NCBI GenBank assembly: GCA_022592445.1
Contig: JABYQR010000258.1
Span: forward strand, 1 to 64,000
Origin: Cytidiella melzeri
Lineage: Eukaryota > Basidiomycota > Agaricomycetes > Polyporales > Irpicaceae
Direction of reading: 5' to 3'
Length of the DNA stretch: 64,000 nt
Numbering within the stretch: the stretch's first letter is position 1; the number at the start of each line of letters is the position of its first letter. Positions 33,604-46,500 of this stretch are shown piece by piece. The position numbers were made by a program, and so were the translations under genes. The notes under the pieces are model-generated. The model ran no database searches, had not been told where the DNA came from, and saw nothing but the letters and a program-made list of their open reading frames with translations.

Positions 33604-35209
33604 TACAGTAGCGGCAAAAAGTCTTGCGACACCGCAAGCGCACAACTCTTTGCTCTCCGTTTGAGCTCAACACTGCTTATTTTATTCAATCATTTTTTAC
33701 ACATTGAGTATTTCATGTATAGAATATGTCTACAGTGAAATTAAAAGAGTCTGTCTCGTATATAACACATTGTGCACAATCCGCGCTGTCGCGACGCTAG
33801 GCGCCCGTCGCGCGCACGCCCACTATTTGGGTTTGTTTTGTTTTTTGATCTCTCCACTTCACCACTATCGTGCTTTTTTCGATACCACCCACTCTCCCAA
33901 CTCTGGACCACACATATGGTGCAGTGTACCCCTACTAAAAAGGCCCAAATTTGGACTCTGCATAATGAAGGTGTCAGTGTGCCTGACATTCGCAAGAAAG
34001 TCCCCGTCCACCGGTCCACCATCTATCGCACCATCCAAAAACTATCCCACAATCCTGACTTCTATGCAAACAAGCCCAAGACAGGTCGCCCTCGCGTTCT
34101 ACAAGACCGCAATCTCCGTCACGCCTCTTTACTCCTGGCACGACAAGAGGCCCGCAGCGCTATGGACGTGCAGCGCAAGGCATTCCCACAAGTGGCTGCC
34201 TGAACAACGCGTCACAACCTTGCAGAGATTGGGCTGAAGGGATATGTGCGTCGACAAAAGCCGTTTCTCTCTGTAGCTCATAAGAAGAAGCGCAAGTGGT
34301 GGGCTGGACATGCAACCAGATGGGGGCAGAAAGAGTGGGGGGTAATGGTGTTCTCAGATGAGTCCAAATTTAATTTATTTGGCTCAGATGGGAGGGAATA
34401 CTGCCAAAGAAGACAGGGCGAGGAGTTTTTGGACCGGAATGTGCAGAAGACAGTGAAGCACGGGGGTGGAAGTATCATGGTGTGGGGATGCATCACTTTG
34501 AAGGGAAAAGGAAGGCTACACCGCATTGATGGGAAGATGGATGCAAAGCTTTACTGCTCCATCCTATCAGAGTCTCTTCTGGGCACATTGGCAGACCAAG
34601 ATTTGACCTGCCGACAGATCATTTTCCAACAGGACAATGATCCAAAGCACATGTCAAAGCTTGCTACAGCTTGGTTCAAGGAGAACAAGATCACTGTATT
34701 GCCCTGGCCTCCAAATTCACCAGATATGAATATTCTGGAGAATGTCTGGGACCATCTAGACCGCAAATTACGTGCTCGCAAGCAGCAACCGTCAAATAAG
34801 GAGGAGCTGTGGGAGGCATTGCAGGAGGAGTGGGCAAATTTGGACGATGAGTATATCAAGGGATTGTATGAGTCTCTCCCCACTCGTGCAGCAGAGCTTA
34901 TGCGGGCAAAGGGGTCCTATACTAGGTACTAATTTTACCAGAATTTTTTGACAAATTTTTACATAGAATAGTCGAGATGATGTGCAATAGTAGTAGTACA
35001 ACACGTGGGCACCTAATGCAGTTTTTGCGCGGATTGCACGTAGTTCCTCGCGCACAACGTCGATCAGCCTTATTTTACTAAGGACACAATTTTTACACGA
35101 TAACAAATGTGTGAGAACTGAACCCAAAACTATATGCAAAAAATGAGCTCGAACGATGAGAAGCATCTTGCGCGCTCGCGGTGTCGCAAGACTTTTTGCC
35201 GCTACTGTA
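33604..35209 (+). mobile_element. Tc1/mariner-type DNA transposon
   Basis: The element of about 1602 bp (33606-35207) is bounded by TA on both sides. Its terminal inverted repeats start CAGTAGCGGCAAAAAGTCTT and extend about 40 bp (GCGACACCGC..GCGC). It contains one transposase frame. The termini are still nearly identical, so it moved relatively recently. It interrupts the relic of the secreted-protein flank. Confidence 0.9.
33916..34932 (+). pseudogene. Tc1-family transposase with one in-frame stop
   Basis: The DDE transposase starts at ATG 33916 with an N-terminal helix-turn-helix (KKAQIWTLHNEGVSVPDIRK, STIYRTIQKL, then the GRPR motif). After TGA at 34201-34203 the same frame continues to 34932 with VFSDESKFNLFGSDG (first Asp), IIFQQDNDPKHMSK (second Asp) and PDMNILENVWDHLDRK (Glu, a DD34E-like spacing). 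The length without the stop, about 338 codons, is typical for Tc1. Apart from the one stop, which lies between the DNA-binding and catalytic parts, the frame is complete. An intron covering the stop is not supported by good splice sites. Confidence 0.88.
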
Positions 35210-35327
35210 TGTGAGTTCTCGGTGCGTCCTCGGCGAGATTGGGCTGATAAGCGCGGTTATCGTCGGGAAAGCGGTGAGAAACACAAGAAGTGTCTTCGAG
35301 TGTCGATCAGAGTGAGTGGGAATAATG

Positions 35328-35590
35328 CAGACTCCTACCCAGTCGCCGTCGGTCGGGAGAGTAGAAGATATGCTGGGTCTCGAGGGGAATTTGGTTTTGT
35401 TTTGTCTTATACTAGTTTTGGAAATCCATCAATTTTACACGTGCTGATTCTCAACCTTAATTCTACTTCCCTCCCTCCGACGACTGGCTTCTAACAACTG
35501 TAAACAAAGATAGCCGCCTCGGCCGGCACAGTCGGAATTGTAAGTAAAATGTTGGCGCCAAAAAAAACTATAGCGCTGAGAATATTCACA
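35328..35590 (+). repeat. left terminal inverted repeat
   Basis: This 263-bp repeat is inverted at 42172-42436. It contains GATAGCCGCCTCGGCCGGCA and GTTGGCGCCA followed by an A run, and ends GAGAATATTCACA. Small substitutions and indels separate the copies. It probably includes the helicase promoter, since the ATG is 50 bp downstream. Confidence 0.88.
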
Positions 35591-36648
35591 AACATTTCGT
35601 GACACCTGCCACTTCTTTCTGGTCGACTTACCCAGCAGCATGGAGCAACGGTCCAACTTTACTGGCAATGTCTCCGCGGCCAGTAGGTCAGAAGTGCCAT
35701 CCATCGAAACAATACGCACCGCATGCCAGGCCATCTTTGGGATCCGGGCGTGTCGGTTTCAATGCCTCTTCGCTCAGGCCGTGCTGGGAGGAAACGACGT
35801 ACTTTTCGAGGTAGGAACCGGCAGAGGCAAGACACTGGCATTCTGGCTCCCCCTGCTGTTCCGCCCCCGCGGTCTTCAAATTGTGGTAACGGCTCTCAAT
35901 GTACTCGGTGAACAGAATGTCGCCCAGCTCGCAAAGGCTGGCATCAAGGCTACCGCGATTAATGCCGAGACAGCGACCACGGCAAACATTTAGGTGAGTA
36001 ACATAACCTTGTATTGATCTCAGACTCAACGCTATCTGCAATCAGGCCATCCAGGACGGGGCGTATAGGGCGGTAATCATTAGCCCTGAACAGCTGATGA
36101 AACACGGAGGTGGGTTTCAGAAGCTGTTGAGGAGGCCAGATTTTCTCGCTCGCATCATCAGTGTCGTTTTTGACGAAGCGCACTGCATCAGCACTTGGGG
36201 CTCGTTTCGGCCGGAATACAAATTACTCGAGCAGCTACGACACACTGTTTTGAAGGATATCCCGGTGGCGGCTGCTTCTGCTACCCTTCCGCACGCTGTC
36301 AAACAAGATGTTATGGCCACACTGCATCTTTGGAGCAGTCAACTTGTCCGCATATCTCGCACTATCGATTGGCCGAACGTGCACTTGACAGTGCAAAAAA
36401 TTCAGTACCCGCTCACCAGTTATCTTGACCTCACATTCGTTCTGCCTAAAGAACCTGGCTCTAGCGCGCCCCCGAAATTCATTATTTTTTTTGACAGTGT
36501 TGCTGAGACAGTCGCGGCAGGTAGATTATTGCACAGCCGTCTTCCAGTGGAGGCTGCCAATAAAATTTATTGGTTTAACTGTGATATGTCCGAGACATTT
36601 AAGAGAGCTGCGGTTGAGATGCTGAAAGTCGGAAATGTAACAGTAATG

Positions 36649-37355
36649 CTACACTCACCAGATAAGTTGGTTAACTTGAGGGGGATGTGGTGAGATAGAG
36701 AGTAAGAGTGGTGGTGAGCAAAGTACTGGTGGGTACTGAGTAGTCCTGGTTCAACAGAGTGGATAAGACTGAGGGGATATGCCCTCAGGAGTGCCTCTAT
36801 ATATACATGAAGGGGAGGACCCCAGGTACTACCCTAAGACCCCTAATACCTACATGAGTAAGCGAAGTAATATACCTTACTAAGCATGCCCTATGCCCTA
36901 GTGGTGCCACTTCAATAATCAACCAATAGCAATTGTCCCCATGACCTGACCCCATGACCCAGCTCCAAGGCTAGACTTGTTCTAGCTTGTTCTAAGACAA
37001 GGCTAGACTTTTCCAGAAGGTTCTAAGAACTATGACATCATCTAATGGAATGTTCTATACTATGACATCATAGTTCCAGCATGTTCCACAATGTTCCAGA
37101 GAGTTCTATCATGTGATACACAGATAAGGAAAGGAGCGCATCAGCGCATCAGAGACAGGAGGCGCATCAGCGCATCAATTGATAGGCACTGAGAATAAGC
37201 GCCGGAATAGGCGCCTGATAAGCGCCAGAATAGGCGCCTGATAAGCGCCAGATAAGCGCTTGACAAGCACTTGAATATTCCCAATAATACCGTTGCCTGG
37301 TAAGGCAAGTCTTGTAGAAACATTGAAAATCTGTGACAGGAAAGCTGTGGGGTAT
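36649..37355. mobile_element. insertion inside the helicase gene, gypsy-LTR related
   Basis: The helicase frame breaks after ATG at 36646-36648 and resumes after ATG at 37356-37358, so a 707-bp insert with a 3-bp duplication (ATG) explains it. The insert holds a purine tract and TG (GAGGGGGATGTGGTGAG, 36681) followed by LTR-like sequence (TATATATACATG, GAGGACCCCAGGTAC, GTTCCACAATGTTCCAGAG) also seen near 50810-50930 and, inverted, at 61529-61790. A minisatellite (37141-37262) lies inside. It may be a truncated gypsy 3' end or a non-autonomous element carrying one. Confidence 0.6.
37141..37262. repeat. minisatellite of GCGCATCA and AGCGCC/GGCGCC units
   Basis: GCGCATCA occurs four times, followed by units of the form TAAGCGCC(A/G)GAATAGGCGCC. 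The units contain short palindromes, so the block could form local hairpins. Confidence 0.6.
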
Positions 37356-39410
37356 ATGTGCGACAGACTCGTTCGGATTGGTAAGTCAATTCTGTGCATC
37401 ATCTTTCGCACTATCTTCTAATATGTTTGTTATAGGGTGTTGATATACCAGACTTTGTTCTCGTAGTACAGTGGAGAGCAAGATGTAGCCTATGTACATT
37501 GTGGCAAAGATTCGGCCGCGGCGGCCGTGGACAGGGCACGGAAGCCGTTGCGGTGTTTCTTGTAGAGGCGAAGCACTTCGACGAAGAGAAAGAAAAAATT
37601 GAGGCAAGGAAAGCGGCGAAGAGACAAAAGAATTCAAACAAAAAGCCACTGCCCCGTGTTCAGTTCAGCAAGCCACCCGTCGTTCATCCAGACCTCTTAC
37701 ACGTGTCCTCGCGTCTTGCGCCGTCAACTAGCAATGCCCCTGTCGTAGCTGTTAGTGCCCATGTCAACAATGACGAGGTGGAGGAAGACGACACACTCAA
37801 TGGACACGACGATACGGTCCCCGATAACAAGCAAGGCGAACTCGATGGCGATGGTGCTCCTTCGCGCACTCAGGAGGATCAGCTTGAGACTGACAGCGCC
37901 CGACGCGCACAATATCAACACGGAAAGCCACGCACGACTACAAAGGGTGGAAGGAAGAGAGCCGAGGTGGAGCTTGAAGAAGCCATGGACAACTTGATTA
38001 ACGCAGGTCAGCGCAAAGGACTGGAGTGCAGGCGCAAGCCTATCACATTGTACTTCAGCAGCGGCCCAGCTGGTAAGTTTTCACTCACCTTATAGCCCTG
38101 TAATGACTGACTTACTTCAAGAGTCGGACCACCTACTTTGTGACACAACGAACACACGGGGGTGCGCACGCTGCGCTATCAAAACTCCGAGGATATGTTG
38201 TGATTTGCACGATGGCGCTAAAGCGCTTATCGACGCTCTTTACCCTCCCACCATCGTCGAACGACCTCCCCCTGATCCCAAACGCTCCCACCTCAAGGAC
38301 TACACCGCTGGACCTGCCGACATGGAGCTCAAGCACAGCCTCCACCACTGGAGGGTCAACAAGACCGTCGACCTCCTTGGACCAGGAGGCTTGTCCAACT
38401 TTGGCCCTGGCGTCGTGATGCCGGACGATACGCTGGCCCGTATCGTTGACTGCGCTCACCAAGGGAAGATCGCCGACGAGCAGGATCTCAGCCGCGAGAC
38501 GAAGTGGTGTGGGGCAGAGCGGTACGGAGGTGAGGTCTTGGATATGATCAGGCAAGTGTACCCACCTCTGCGAGCGCAAGCCTTCACCACGGCTGTGCTG
38601 GAAGCTCGACCTCTCACTTCAACATCTACAGCGAAGAACGCACCTGCGTTGAAGAAATCTAGGACGTGCAGTGCGTGTAAACAGGCGGGGCATACACGTA
38701 TGTGACGAGAGGTCATCCGTCGAGCATACTAACTAATTTCATTATAGAGCGCAGCAAGAACTGCCCCTTGTATGCACAAACCGTACAAACAAAGGCGCAG
38801 GCAAAGGAGAACATGCCTCCTCGTTCACTACCTCTCGACACGTTGCTGGCCGTCTCGTCTACATCCTCCATTGCTTCCGTCTCGCACGCGTCGTCTGTCT
38901 CCATGCCTCCTCGTGCACAACCTCTTGACACGCTGAACGATCTGGCCGTCTCGTCTACATCTTCCATTGCTTCCGTCTCGAACGCCTCGTCTGTCTCCAT
39001 GCCCCCTCGTGCGCTACCTCCTAACACGTCGAACGATCTGGCCGTCTCGCCCTCCTCTCTCATTTCTTCCGTCTCGAACACCCCGCCTGTCTCGAACATT
39101 GCAAACCGCTCGAGCATTCCAACTGCCCCATCTAGCGGCAGCTGCACGTATACCAATCCACTCGACTCGCTACTGGAATTGTTCAGAATGTCAACGCCGC
39201 GGCGCGTGATGACGGTCGCTCAGCTACAAGCTGAGCATGCAGCTCAGCTTGCGCCAATCCACCAAGCTCAGCTCATGAGACACAGCACGGTACGTCGTAT
39301 ATCACACTATTCGAACAACATTCACTGGGACCCTTGCCCTCTAGCTTCTGACTCTCGTTCTGCGCCTCAGTCTGTCCACTTGCCAGCAGCTCGCACTCAC
39401 ACTCCAACCT

Positions 39411-42126
39411 CTACAGTGACGTCTTCGAGTGTGACCTCAATTCGTCATCAACCCCTCCATCTTCATCATTCGCCACATCCGAGTTGGGCGCCGCGGCAGT
39501 AGAGAACAGCTGTTGACCTTTGTCTTTCATATCTGCAATTGAATGTGTACTCTCTCGTCCCTTGACAATCTCGTGGGGCTTTGTGTCTTGTAGGTACCGC
39601 AGTAACGCATCGAAGGTCAGGGTCATATCAGGCTCCGCGTGCCTGGTTGTGAGATGACCGAGTGCCAAATTGCGTTGGAATGTAAGATGGAGGTCGCAGA
39701 ACACTTGTATGAGCACGCTCTTGTCAATGATCCGCCTCTCTGTATAGTTCACGCCTACACCGCCATATTTTGTCTTTGATTCTCATCAGAAGTACGTCGC
39801 TCTGCACTCATTGTGACGACTTACCTTTGTATACAGATTATTCAGTTCCAAGCACCAATCGGGCACCCTGAAGCAATCTGGTTTCCCTGACGGATTAATG
39901 AGTATGCTGTACCGAATTGCTTTCCTAATGACAGATTATGATATCAGCTTAAGCCACTCTCTCTTCTAGCCATTAAAATTATGCGTACTTTAAGCCAGGC
40001 GGATATAGGAAGGGTACGTTTGAAAGATACTTCACCCTATGTTTCACATACTTATGCTTTCCAGTTGCTTTGAAGATCCAAATCCAGGGTATAAAGCAAG
40101 ACTCCACACAACCAATATCACCATGGTTCATGGCAAAGGTAATCTCCTCATATAGGCAGAAGTATTCATGAAGGAGGAGGTTGTTCTCGTATTGCCTGTC
40201 GCGGACACTTGAAGCCTGGCTGCGTAAGTTGTGAAGCTTTTCCTTACGGTCCACGCAGTTCATGGCCAGATGGTTTGCAACTGCCTTCAGATAGTCGAGG
40301 GAAGGTTTTGACGCCGCAAACAGCTGTAGTGAAGTATGTGATGGGTCTCGTCTCTGTGCCTCAACCCTCCAGCAATCCAACCGACGGCAAATTCCTGCAT
40401 GCTGAATGATCTGATGCATTCTTCGGAAACCTGGCTTCGATGCAACAGTCCCAGTTTCTCGTGGGCGAAGAATGCTGACGTCCTTCATCAGGCAAGTGCT
40501 ATCTGTTCTTGCAGTCCCTGGCTGTATGAATATCTTCCACAGAGCATCGACACATGCCATCTTCAGGTGAAATAATCCAAGAACAAATACGACGAACTGT
40601 AGACAAAGCCACGGAGTACCTTCGATTGAGCGTCTTTCAAGAGAGGCCTCTATCTTCTCGCCAGTTCCTAGGTCGCCATAGAACAGTACGACGTGCTCAG
40701 AGATGTCGATATCTGCCTGATTTCCACCGGAATCCACATGCACCACTCGAGGATCACCAACACCAACCTGACTCAGAATGTGAGTCAAGGCACTGATGTT
40801 ACCTGCCACTTGTGAGTTATTATCCATCGTTGCCCGTAGTGGAAGAATAGGTGTCTTTGCTAAAGGAATTTTCTCGACAGACTCTGGTTCGCCTATCTTG
40901 GAGGTATATTTCCGAAATTCCTCGGGACCGTAATGGCAGAGATCGTAGAGGAATTTCCACGCATTGAAACGGTCACGGACGGTCATCATGTTTTCGTCGA
41001 CAAGTAGTGTATTGGGATGAATACGCATCAAGTCAAGCCAGGTAGGCTTTGGTGGAATGAGATACCGTGGTGCATGGATATTCAATTGTGATCGTTCCCA
41101 TAGGTATTGCGAGCAGCGAAGATCGTCTGCAGTTGTACCATGCAGAAGGGGAAACACCATTGATGTAGTGAAGTGCTTTGATGTTTCACCTGCTCTCTCG
41201 ATTGTTGGCACTGACGGTTTGAACTCGATGTCCAGGTTATCGTGTGCATACACCACGATGAGAGTTGCCGCCACCTTCTGCGCATCTGCAAGGATGTGTT
41301 TTCCAAGTGAATCTAGTGATCGGTATATGGTGAGTTGCGCGATGGAGATTCCCATATGAGCAAGCGAGTCAACGAGTTTCTGGGGGGCGTGCATGGCATG
41401 TAAAAATATCCCACACATACTCTGTAACCAGTTGGACTTCTGATTGCGCCCTTGCATGATTATACTGCTGACTATGACCTTTTTCTTCCATAGGCCATGA
41501 GATCACGTAGAGATAAAACAAGCTGTATGAAATAAACACGTACACTCAGAGTGGCTGCCTGTTGCCGCTTTACCAAGTTTGTCGTGAAACGTTTCCGCTT
41601 CCTACTACCATTGGTAGCCTGCGCGTCGCCAAGATCATTTCCAGTCAGCTCGAATAGCGCATCGTCTGTCTCCTCATCCTGATCAGACCCTCCTGTGGCC
41701 CCCCCTCAACATCACATCCAACATGGCCCATAGATGTGATCCTGTTACTCGCATCTCTTGAGCCATATCCACAAGATCAAACTCTTGCAGCTGATACAGC
41801 TCGGCATGTCCTGCAATGAAATGCCACCCTCCGTCATGAGATGCAAGGTCATCTATCTCCTCGTCTATCATCTCCGTGGCTTTGCGGTGGATCCAGCGGC
41901 TCGTGTTGTGAGAGGTTTGCAAATTTCGCGCGAGAGCTGATAACAGATCCTCCAATGAAGCAAGTAGATCTTGTACTAATGGGTGGTATGAGGCCTCTAG
42001 AGATAAGGCACTCAGTATCAATTTTGATATACTGAGGTTGTGGGAGGACAGTAGGTGTGTAATCTCTTCGAAGAGTGCGTACATGACGGTGTGTGCGCGG
42101 TACACGATGCTATCGACTCGGTGCAC
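39411..42126 (-). CDS. DUF6589-domain protein of the TIR element
   Basis: DUF6589 is a basidiomycete-expanded domain without known function. The first block (42126-41683) encodes a helical N-terminus with HRKATEMIDEEIDDLASHDG and MRVTGSHLWAMLDVMLRG. After an intron-bearing linker (KRKRFTTNLVKRQQAATLS), the frame 41457-39979 encodes the core: SIAQLTIYRSLDSLGKHI, VVYAHDNLDIEFK, FPLLHGTTADDLRCSQYLWE, PTWLDLMRIHPNTLL, RFNAWKFLYDLCHYGPEEF, LPLRATMDNNSQVAGNISAL, DISEHVVLFYGDLGTGEKIE and CLYEEITFAMNHGDIGCVES. Further exons end at 39411 (YTERRIIDKSVLIQVFCDLH). The start is uncertain: an acceptor (TTTTACAG) stands right before 42120, and the first good ATG is at about 42086. The core is uninterrupted for 492 codons, so this may be the better preserved gene of the element. 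Confidence 0.8.
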
Positions 42127-42171
42127 TGTAAAACTGTACCGCGGTAAGATCAGGATCCCGATATATTCAAC

Positions 42172-42436
42172 TGTGAATATTCTCAGCGCTATAGTTTTTT
42201 TTTGGCGCCAACATTTTACTTATAATTCCGACTGTGCCGGCCGAGGCGGCTATCTTTGTTTACAGTTGTTAGAAGCCAGTCATCGGAGGGAGGGAAGTAG
42301 AATTAAGGTTGGGAGAATAAGCACGTGTTAAATTGATGGATCTCCTAAAATGGTACCACAAAAAACACAACCAAATACCCTCGAGACCCAGCATATCTTC
42401 TACTCTCCCGACTGACGGCGACTGGGTAGGAGTCTG
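42172..42436 (-). repeat. right terminal inverted repeat
   Basis: This 265-bp repeat is the reverse complement of 35328-35590 with scattered mismatches. The DUF6589 gene starts within about 100 bp inside it, so the two TIRs likely act as the promoters of the two convergent genes. Confidence 0.88.
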
Positions 42437-42739
42437 GGTCAAAGGGTGGAATGTCGACAGGAGAAGGGCTTTTTGTTGAAGCTGATATCATCCGAGGGAG
42501 CTAATAATCAAAAGAAAGGTTGAATATTAATGAGAAAGCGGGTCAGAAATAGAAAGATTACTTACCTCAGATCAAAATTGGACAGCCAAACGATGCGGAT
42601 CAGCAGCAAGATTGATGTCTTCATCTTGATCGGACGCAAGCCCATTGTCGTTGCCATTAAGGAATGGATGCTGGCTGTTGTCGTCTTCAGCATCCTCGTC
42701 GTCACCATCATCATCAAGGAGCTGGGCTGCGCTCCTTGA
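42437..42739. other. flank between the TIR element and the Plavaka-side gene
   Basis: Minus-strand acidic coding-like sequence at about 42740-42562 (LLDDDGDDEDAEDDNSQ, LASDQDEDINLAADPH) may be a last exon of the gene at 42740-43355. Otherwise no feature is seen. Confidence 0.4.
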
Positions 42740-43588: not shown

Positions 43589-46500
43589 ATGTCTCGTAAA
43601 TGTCCTGCATGCAAAGAAGTCTTCAGTCGAAGCGGCCTTAAACATCATTATCGTCTTACCGAAGCCAAAGGGTGTTGACATTATCTCGCGGAACATGGCG
43701 CAGCAGAGAACCTCTCCAACACAGAGTCGAGCCGCAATTCCGACAACCTCTCCGATGAGGACAGTGATGATACAAACGATTACCATGCTTTCCCGCAGGT
43801 TATTATAGGGCCAGCAGTGGAGGAACTTGATGAAACCGGCCAGTTCCACCTGGGAATCGATCCTTCAGGTGATGCGCTGGGTGACTATGCCGATTTGGAT
43901 CAGGATGGCGACGTCAAAATGGAATCCAGCGAGGACGAGGGGGGGTTAGGCAATTTAGAGGAGTCGGATTGGGAGACAGAGACAGAAGAAGATGTGGTCA
44001 CTAAGGAACCACTGCGCGCAATTCGAACTGCTGGAGCTGTAACCGACCGTGATCCCGCGCCAAATCTGCAGCGCCACCGCCTACAGCGGGATGAGGCCAA
44101 GCGTCAGCTTCTGCGCACGCTGCATGTTGTACAGTACCCAGGCGGAGCAGGAAAACCAATCGGCACATTGAAAACCTGTAACAATGTATATGCGACGCAA
44201 GTTCCTACCACTCAAAACATTTATGCACCATTCTCGTCGCGAATCAACTGGGAGATTGCGCGTTGGGCAAAGTTACGAGGCCCTGGGTCGACGGCGCTCA
44301 CGGAGCTTCTAAGAATACCAGAGGTTTGTCAGCTAGATCAACTTTGCGAGCACTTGAACCTAATAACCGGTGCGATGCCAGGTCCCCGACTTGCTTGGTC
44401 TGTCGTTTTGCACTACAGATGAGCTTAACGACATCGTTGACAAGCGTCTACCGGGTCGACCTCGGTTCGCGCGCCACAAAGTCCTCATCGGGGATGAAGT
44501 ATGCAAGATATTCTACAGAGACATCATAGAGTGCATCAGATCGTTATTTGGTGACCCTGATTTTGGAGCGTACCTTGTGTTTGTGCCTGAGAAGCATTAC
44601 ACGGATGCAGGGAAGACGAAGCGCATGTTTCATGACGGGCAGACGGGCAGGTGGTGGTGGGCTATGCAGGTAAGATGCACAGCGCAACAATTTGATGTGA
44701 CGATTTATTGATATGTGCATCATAGGAGGAGGTGGAGCGCGATTCCCCTGGCGCAACAATTATTCCCATCATTATATCGACAGACAAAACTCAACTGACC
44801 TTGTTTTGCAATAAAACGGCGTACCCCATCTACCTTACCATTGGCAACATTCCCAAAGAAATCCGTCGAAGACCATCGTCCCGCGCATATGTGCTTCTCA
44901 GTTACCTCCCGACAACAACACTGGAACTCGTCGCTAACAAAGCCGCACGTCGTCGAATGCTTACAAATTTGTATCACGCATGCATGAAGAAAGTGCTTGA
45001 GCCACTGGAAAAGGCTGGCGTGTCAATTTTGACCATGGTAAGCGGAAACGGCGCCACGTACAAGACACATCCCATATTTGCATGCTTTGTCGGTGATTAT
45101 ACAGAAGAGATCTTGGCGTTGCTAGGAACCACAGGAAAATGTGCGTGCTGCCCGATCCCGCACGATTGGCTGGGTGACCATGTCCCGGAGATGGCAAGCA
45201 AGCTTCGAGATCTTTCCGCAATTCTAAATATCTTGGATTCGTTCAAAGACCATCCCGAGAAATTCCTGAAATCCTGCGCAGAAGGAAACGTGAAACTTGT
45301 TATTGAGCCATTCTGGATCAATTCACCGTACACTCACATATTCCGGTCAATTACACCGGACGTTCTTCACCAACTCTACCAGGGCATAGTCAAGCATCTT
45401 GTTGCCTGGCTGATTGAAGCCTTTGGAGCCGCCAAAATCGATGCACGATGTCGTCGGATGCCACCCAATCACCAAATCCGAATATTCGGCAACGGAATTA
45501 GCTCGCTGTTGAAAGTCACCGGGCACGAGCATGACCAGATATGTCGCATTTTGCTGGGACTTGTCCTGGATATGCCGCCCCTGGATGGCACCGTCTTGCC
45601 TGCGCCAGTTGTTAGGTGTGTCCGTGCCATCCTGGATTTCTTGTACTTGGCCCAATATCCTGTGCATACCGACAACACCCTCTCTCTCCTTGATGACGCC
45701 CTGGCTCGCTTCCATGCTGATAAGGACGTTTTCGTCAAGTTGGGGATTCGTGAAAACTTCAACCTACCGAAGCTACATTTCGCCCTCCACTACACGCAGT
45801 CGATCCGCTTGTTTGGCACCACAGACAATTTCAATACAGAGTATACGGAGAGACTTCACATAGATTTCACAAAGGACGCATATCGAGCAACAAAAAAGAA
45901 GGACAAGTTTACGCAGATGACGGTGTGGCTAGAGCGGCACGAGAAAATTTACCGCCATGATCAGTTCGTTAATTGGCGAGTCCGTCAGCATGAGAAGCCC
46001 CAGAAGCCCATCCTGCAGACTTGGTCGCCTCCTGGTTTGGATCTCGACCGCCGCCTGCACCTCGCAAAATGTTCAGCAGTCAGATCGGTTGCGAGTCCGC
46101 AACTAGTCGAGCAGTACGGCGCACAATTCTTTTGAGAGGCGCTTGCGCGCTTCGTTACGCTGACTAATGAGCCAAATATCACCCGCGGCCAACTCGAACA
46201 CGCTATTTGGAACTTCCATCTCCCCTTGCGCAAGCTGTCTGTCTGGCACCACCTCAAGTTCCAGCGCATGGATGTAGTCACCGGCAAACCACCGTCGACT
46301 CAGTTCATGCCTGGCCGGCTCGGATGGATTCGCGACGGAAACCTGTGCCAGGCTGCTTTGACACGGTGCTCGTTAACGACGGATCTGGCGGGCTTACAGG
46401 CATTACAGGTGTGTAGCTGGTTTTATGATTCTAATGTTTTTTTACTCATGTTGGAGGTAGGCTATTGCGTTGGCCGTGTCCGTGCCATATTCTCGCTGCC

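What the first reader, a model, noticed from the sequence alone, without database searches (positions are those of the whole stretch)
35328..42436. A TIR-bounded element with a RecQ-like helicase and a DUF6589 protein
Two 263-265-bp inverted repeats enclose exactly two convergent genes, each starting just inside a repeat. One is a RecQ-like helicase with recognisable motifs I, II, III, V and VI and a zinc-knuckle tail; the other is a DUF6589 protein. Known helicase-bearing transposons (Helitrons) lack TIRs, and RecQ telomere-linked helicases are not TIR elements. This may be an undescribed DNA transposon type in basidiomycetes, or a helicase-DUF6589 pair captured between repeats.
Basis: partly seen in the sequence, partly recalled or inferred. 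Interest (0 to 1): 0.85.

Follow-up and report, generated by a model that had tools for sequence, protein, structure and literature searches.

The report
Decayed helicase-carrying AcademH-type DNA transposon
A worn-out copy of a cut-and-paste jumping gene in a basidiomycete fungus: two long mirror-image ends enclose a transposase (so far filed only as "DUF6589, function unknown") and a RecQ-like helicase, which fits an already described transposon lineage called AcademH.

Summary
Two inverted repeats of about 265 bp, 93% identical (35328-35592, 42172-42436), enclose a RecQ-like helicase gene and a convergent DUF6589 gene. It is a real transposon: nine other complete copies in this genome start at the same CAGACTCCTACCC. 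Exact 9-bp target duplications flank 15 of 18 two-ended copies examined, over three terminus types. The window copy is one of the three without one; its helicase gene is broken by a stop and a ~700-bp repeat, its DUF6589 gene by a frame break, and its flanks come from two unrelated repeats.

Helicase, DDE transposase, TIRs and 9-bp duplications match AcademH as described in print (9 or 10 bp); KolobokH fails on its TTAA duplication. What may be new is assigning DUF6589 as the transposase. No reference AcademH protein could be compared directly.

The parts
35328..35592 (+). left terminal inverted repeat, starts CAGACTCCTACCC
   Evidence: 92.9% to the right arm; same outer limit in the other copies
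42172..42436 (-). right terminal inverted repeat
35640..35993 (+). helicase exon 1 (Walker A region), ends in an in-frame stop at 35991-35993
   Evidence: (PF00270)
36046..36639 (+). helicase exon 2 (DEAH box), cut short by an inserted repeat; start read by eye
36640..37338 (.). high-copy repeat inserted in helicase exon 2; strand not determined, borders approximate
   Evidence: (65 of 133 rows match only query residues 163-198, its first codons)
37339..38833 (+). rest of the helicase gene in four further aligned pieces: motif VI, RecQ-like Cys cluster, zinc knuckle
   Evidence: tblastn of the spliced relative
39441..42084 (-). DUF6589 gene = proposed DDE transposase, several exons; change of frame near 41690
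   Evidence: (PF20231 4e-63); fold
35210..35327 (.). left flank: part of repeat R1, continued elsewhere past this point
42437..42636 (.). right flank: part of another repeat R2, with a different sequence before this point elsewhere

Best explanation
A decayed copy of a cut-and-paste DNA transposon of the AcademH kind. The DUF6589 protein is the DDE transposase: it binds the long TIRs, cuts at the CAG.CTCC ends and joins them to staggered target cuts 9 bp apart, leaving 9-bp duplications. The RecQ-like helicase, read convergently from the other end, is a needed partner, probably unwinding or processing transposon ends or the target gap. Shown: TIRs, exact 9-bp duplications, recent movement (two 100% identical 6088-bp copies with different duplications), pairing of the two genes, purifying selection on both, and a predicted DDE transposase fold. 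Inferred: the catalytic triad (D259 or D262, D448, and E702 or E638, P0001 numbering), TIR binding, and the helicase's step.
Confidence: 0.88

Rival explanations
1. KolobokH: the fungal Kolobok lineage with a DDD/E transposase and a RecQ helicase.
For: Same enzyme pair in fungi; one red-algal Kolobok even encodes its RecQ helicase on the complementary strand (PMC9587614 passages).
Against: Kolobok makes TTAA 4-bp duplications and starts 5'-RR; here 9-bp duplications without TTAA specificity, and ends starting CA or TA. No conserved C/DxxH between D448 and E702: at the G-L-F-H site the C/D place is G in 44 of 45 rows, and the best other site has it in 10 of 45.
Confidence: 0.04
2. A separate, unnamed superfamily of TIR transposons (DUF6589 plus RecQ-like helicase) that only resembles AcademH.
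For: No reference AcademH sequence was compared; convergent two-gene layout and 265-bp TIRs could not be checked against published AcademH; 0 held papers mention DUF6589.
Against: Helicase, DDD/E transposase, basidiomycete host and 9-bp duplication all coincide with AcademH.
Confidence: 0.07
3. A helicase-DUF6589 host gene pair captured between repeats of another element.
For: The window copy has no duplication and its flanks are two different repeats.
Against: 43 convergent pairs genome-wide, the same layout with exact duplications at several sites, gene-less derivatives with the same ends, and a transposase fold for DUF6589.
Confidence: 0.01

Closest known systems
AcademH (lineage of Academ DNA transposons; Kojima 2020, Mob DNA 11:15, not held, known here through citing papers)
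   Same: helicase-encoding, DDD/E transposase, reported in Basidiomycota, 9 or 10-bp duplications
   Different: gene layout, TIR length and transposase sequence could not be compared; no tested feature differs
KolobokH (fungal Kolobok lineage)
   Same: DDD/E transposase plus RecQ helicase in fungi
   Different: TTAA 4-bp duplication and 5'-RR ends there; 9-bp duplication and CAG/TAG ends here
AcademX
   Same: same superfamily by name
   Different: 3 or 4-bp duplications and a nuclease rather than a helicase (PMC10045372, passage)
hAT (Hermes)
   Same: closest solved fold
   Different: hAT makes 8-bp duplications and has no helicase gene (both recalled), and has the C/DxxH signature (PMC9587614, passage)
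Helitron
   Same: a transposon with a helicase (recalled)
   Different: rolling-circle, no TIRs, no target duplication (recalled); here TIRs and 9-bp duplications

Membership tests
AcademH | 9 or 10-bp target-site duplication | tested here: met
   15 of 18 two-ended copies have exactly 9 bp; misses are the window copy, C24 and C173
AcademH | encodes a helicase | tested here: met
   DEAD and Helicase_C above cut-offs; RecQ models and structures best
AcademH | DDD/E transposase | tested here: met
   predicted DDE/RNase H transposase fold and conserved acidic residues; catalysis itself not shown
AcademH | transposase sequence groups with reference AcademH proteins | not testable with these tools
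   source paper not held; no named reference sequence found
AcademH | occurs in fungi including Basidiomycota | tested here: met
Kolobok/KolobokH | TTAA 4-bp duplication | tested here: not met
Kolobok/KolobokH | termini 5'-RR ... YY-3' | tested here: not met
   ends start CA or TA
Kolobok/KolobokH | C/DxxH signature between second D and last E | tested here: not met
   scanned D448 to E702 in the 45-row alignment: no site with it in more than 10 of 45 rows
AcademX | 3 or 4-bp duplication | tested here: not met
Helitron | no TIRs and no target duplication (recalled) | tested here: not met
   TIRs and 9-bp duplications present

The most novel reading that the evidence does not exclude
DUF6589, a large unannotated agaricomycete family, is the catalytic DDE transposase of a two-gene, convergent transposon superfamily in which a RecQ-like helicase is an obligate partner that helps set the 9-bp staggered cut. 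The ~220-bp TIRs would be bound along most of their length, since they stay 84-88% identical between families whose synonymous sites are near or beyond saturation. It would be a sister of, rather than part of, published AcademH.
Probability: 0.1. Interest if true: 0.6.

Novelty: new member of a known kind. Interest (0 to 1): 0.36.

Why it matters
It gives a mechanism-level identity to DUF6589, which Pfam lists as unknown and which brought up 762 proteins at E <= 0.001 (only the best 120 were listed, and those named are fungal, called 'hypothetical', 'uncharacterized' or 'DUF6589 domain-containing'). It also provides several related copies, defined termini and duplications for asking why a DNA transposon needs a RecQ-like helicase, which PMC10045372 (passage) suggests is tied to the longer duplication of AcademH compared with AcademX.

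Tried and rejected
Empty site for the window copy: the two 200-bp flanks joined and searched in the own genome gave no locus spanning the join among the 40 candidates scored (146 found at first look). Left flank = repeat R1 (C514, C371, C91), right flank = repeat R2 (C518, C322, C117); each continues differently elsewhere. So the two ends come from two insertions joined by recombination, or one side was lost by deletion, or the assembly is wrong there; which one is unresolved. Empty sites of the other copies were not searched.

DUF6589 profile against PDB sequences: only 7 weak, non-transposase rows, E 0.13 or more; the transposase link rests on fold and on the element's anatomy. Foldseek alone gave nothing at E <= 0.001.

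Termini: of the 36 helicase-DUF6589 pairs outside the window copy's own family I fetched ends for 12. Both termini were found for 8 (C179, C92, C24, C352, C667, C706, C93, C173). They were not found for C53, C212 and C579, and the left one not for C334; these four are not among the 18. C706 had two, C93 three and C92 two candidate right ends; the one with a 9/9 match was counted. Without these three the tally is 12 of 15. C45 of the window copy's family lacks the outermost 38 bases of its right TIR and is not counted; other loci hold a single TIR.

A TIR-specific LINE was considered, because a LINE inserted at the same TIR site in C712 and C468. Of 40 scored copies of its 3' end (114 candidates at first look) only these two run on into the TIR, so rejected.

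Literature: DUF6589, 0 papers. AcademH, 7 papers, at least one unrelated by title. KolobokH, 3 papers. Other searches. Papers seen as passages only: PMC10799480, PMC10045372, PMC9587614, PMC8290104, PMC12210899, PMC9970103, PMC11075540. Kojima 2020 itself was not seen.

Full report
What is there. Inside, a helicase gene runs rightward from 35640 and a DUF6589 gene runs leftward from about 42084. Pfam gives DEAD for the helicase exons and PF20231 (4e-63) for the main DUF6589 exon. The genome is probably Cytidiella melzeri: six contig lengths (52785, 210970, 165805, 142027, 46408, 101430) recur beside proteins of that species.

The window copy is broken. Helicase exon 1 ends in an in-frame stop (35991-35993). 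Exon 2 is interrupted at about 36640-37338 by a high-copy repeat (65 of 133 rows match only that tail; borders). The DUF6589 reading frame changes near 41690. Its ends show no duplication (5 of 9 bases agree). The left flank belongs to a repeat that continues differently at C514, C371 and C91. The right flank belongs to another that is preceded by different sequence at C518, C322 and C117. A rearrangement or one-sided deletion after insertion is inferred; an assembly error is not excluded.

The family in the genome. The left TIR gives 41 matches in the 49.7-Mb assembly, a lower bound. Copies of 6070-6354 bp at C236, C290, C405, C397, C568 and C712, copies of 1969 and 1971 bp at C237 and C20, and one of 12.6 kb at C468 all start at CAGACTCCTACCC and are flanked by exact 9-bp duplications: 9 of 9. 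C405 and C397 are 100% identical over 6088 bp with different duplications, so movement was recent. The 1.97-kb copies align to the large ones only over their terminal parts (up to about 0.5 kb) and a piece of about 0.1 kb, and C20, C237 and C468 are absent from the gene lists, as non-autonomous derivatives would be. C468 has the same ends with a LINE inserted in its TIR.

Divergent relatives. I fetched the ends of 12 of the 36 pairs outside this family and found both termini in 8. C179 and C92 end in CAGGCTCCTA and have 9-bp duplications; C24 has the same ends without one. A more distant group (helicase matches of 23-27% identity) ends in TAGTCTCG. C352 and C667 and C706 and C93 have 9-bp duplications; C173 has none. 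In total 15 of 18 two-ended copies have a duplication, each exactly 9 bp; leaving out C706, C93 and C92, which had more than one candidate right end, 12 of 15. The two terminus types agree at 13 of 17 positions (CAGACTCCTACCCAGTC and TAGTCTCGTACCCAGAC).

The two genes belong together. DUF6589 matches merge to 82 loci and helicase matches to 61. 44 DUF6589 loci have a helicase match within 10 kb, 43 of the 44 convergent; about 2 would be expected at random. 38 DUF6589 and 18 helicase loci have no partner at this sensitivity. Only the best 120 of each list could be seen. Nei-Gojobori dN/dS was computed for 60 segment-by-pair comparisons; dS was undefined (saturated) in 22. In the 26 with dS above 0.6 it is 0.05-0.21 apart from one 65-codon value of 0.02; the 12 comparisons of close copies give 0.03-0.41.

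How it works. Most likely the DUF6589 transposase recognises the TIRs and does the cutting and joining, with target cuts staggered by 9 bp. The helicase is kept by selection and, where paired, lies convergent in 43 of 44 cases, so it is taken as part of the machinery; unwinding ends or processing the target gap is my inference. PMC10045372 (passage) links the difference in duplication length between AcademH and AcademX to helicase versus nuclease.

What it is. PMC10045372 states that AcademH makes 9 or 10-bp and AcademX 3 or 4-bp duplications. PMC10799480 states that AcademH occurs in Basidiomycota. KolobokH, the other fungal transposon with a RecQ helicase, belongs to a superfamily with TTAA duplications and 5'-RR ends, which fails here. 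I file the element as AcademH-like with the reservation that no reference transposase was compared.

Extra observation. The TIRs stay 84-88% identical between the window copy and C290 while synonymous sites in the genes are near or beyond saturation. This suggests constraint along most of the TIR, though exchange between copies is not excluded.

Noticed in passing
33604-35209: A Tc1/mariner-like element (DDE_3 transposase, 34246-34932) between 66-bp inverted repeats (83%) sits beside the left end; its end repeat is high-copy.
   Followed up: partly
44732-46135: Plavaka transposase ORF (Pfam PF18759, E 2.9e-69) to the right of the element.
   Followed up: no
L016:1194-1503 (C712) and C468 (L017 from 1131, L018 to 3799): Two copies of a poly-A-tailed LINE (40 copies of its 3' end scored, a lower bound) inserted at the same site of the AcademH-like TIR, duplicating GACTGGCACTTAACA.
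   Followed up: partly
G000:C236:19733-19867: An isolated extra TIR piece (TIR positions 1-140, 78%) lies a few bases outside a complete copy.
   Followed up: no
window copy against L010 (C290): TIRs are far more conserved between families than synonymous sites of the genes they enclose.
   Followed up: partly
C111, C130, C353, C61, C229, C724: DUF6589 loci with long open frames (750-1019 aa) and no matching helicase within 10 kb; could be another lineage or have a more divergent partner.
   Followed up: no
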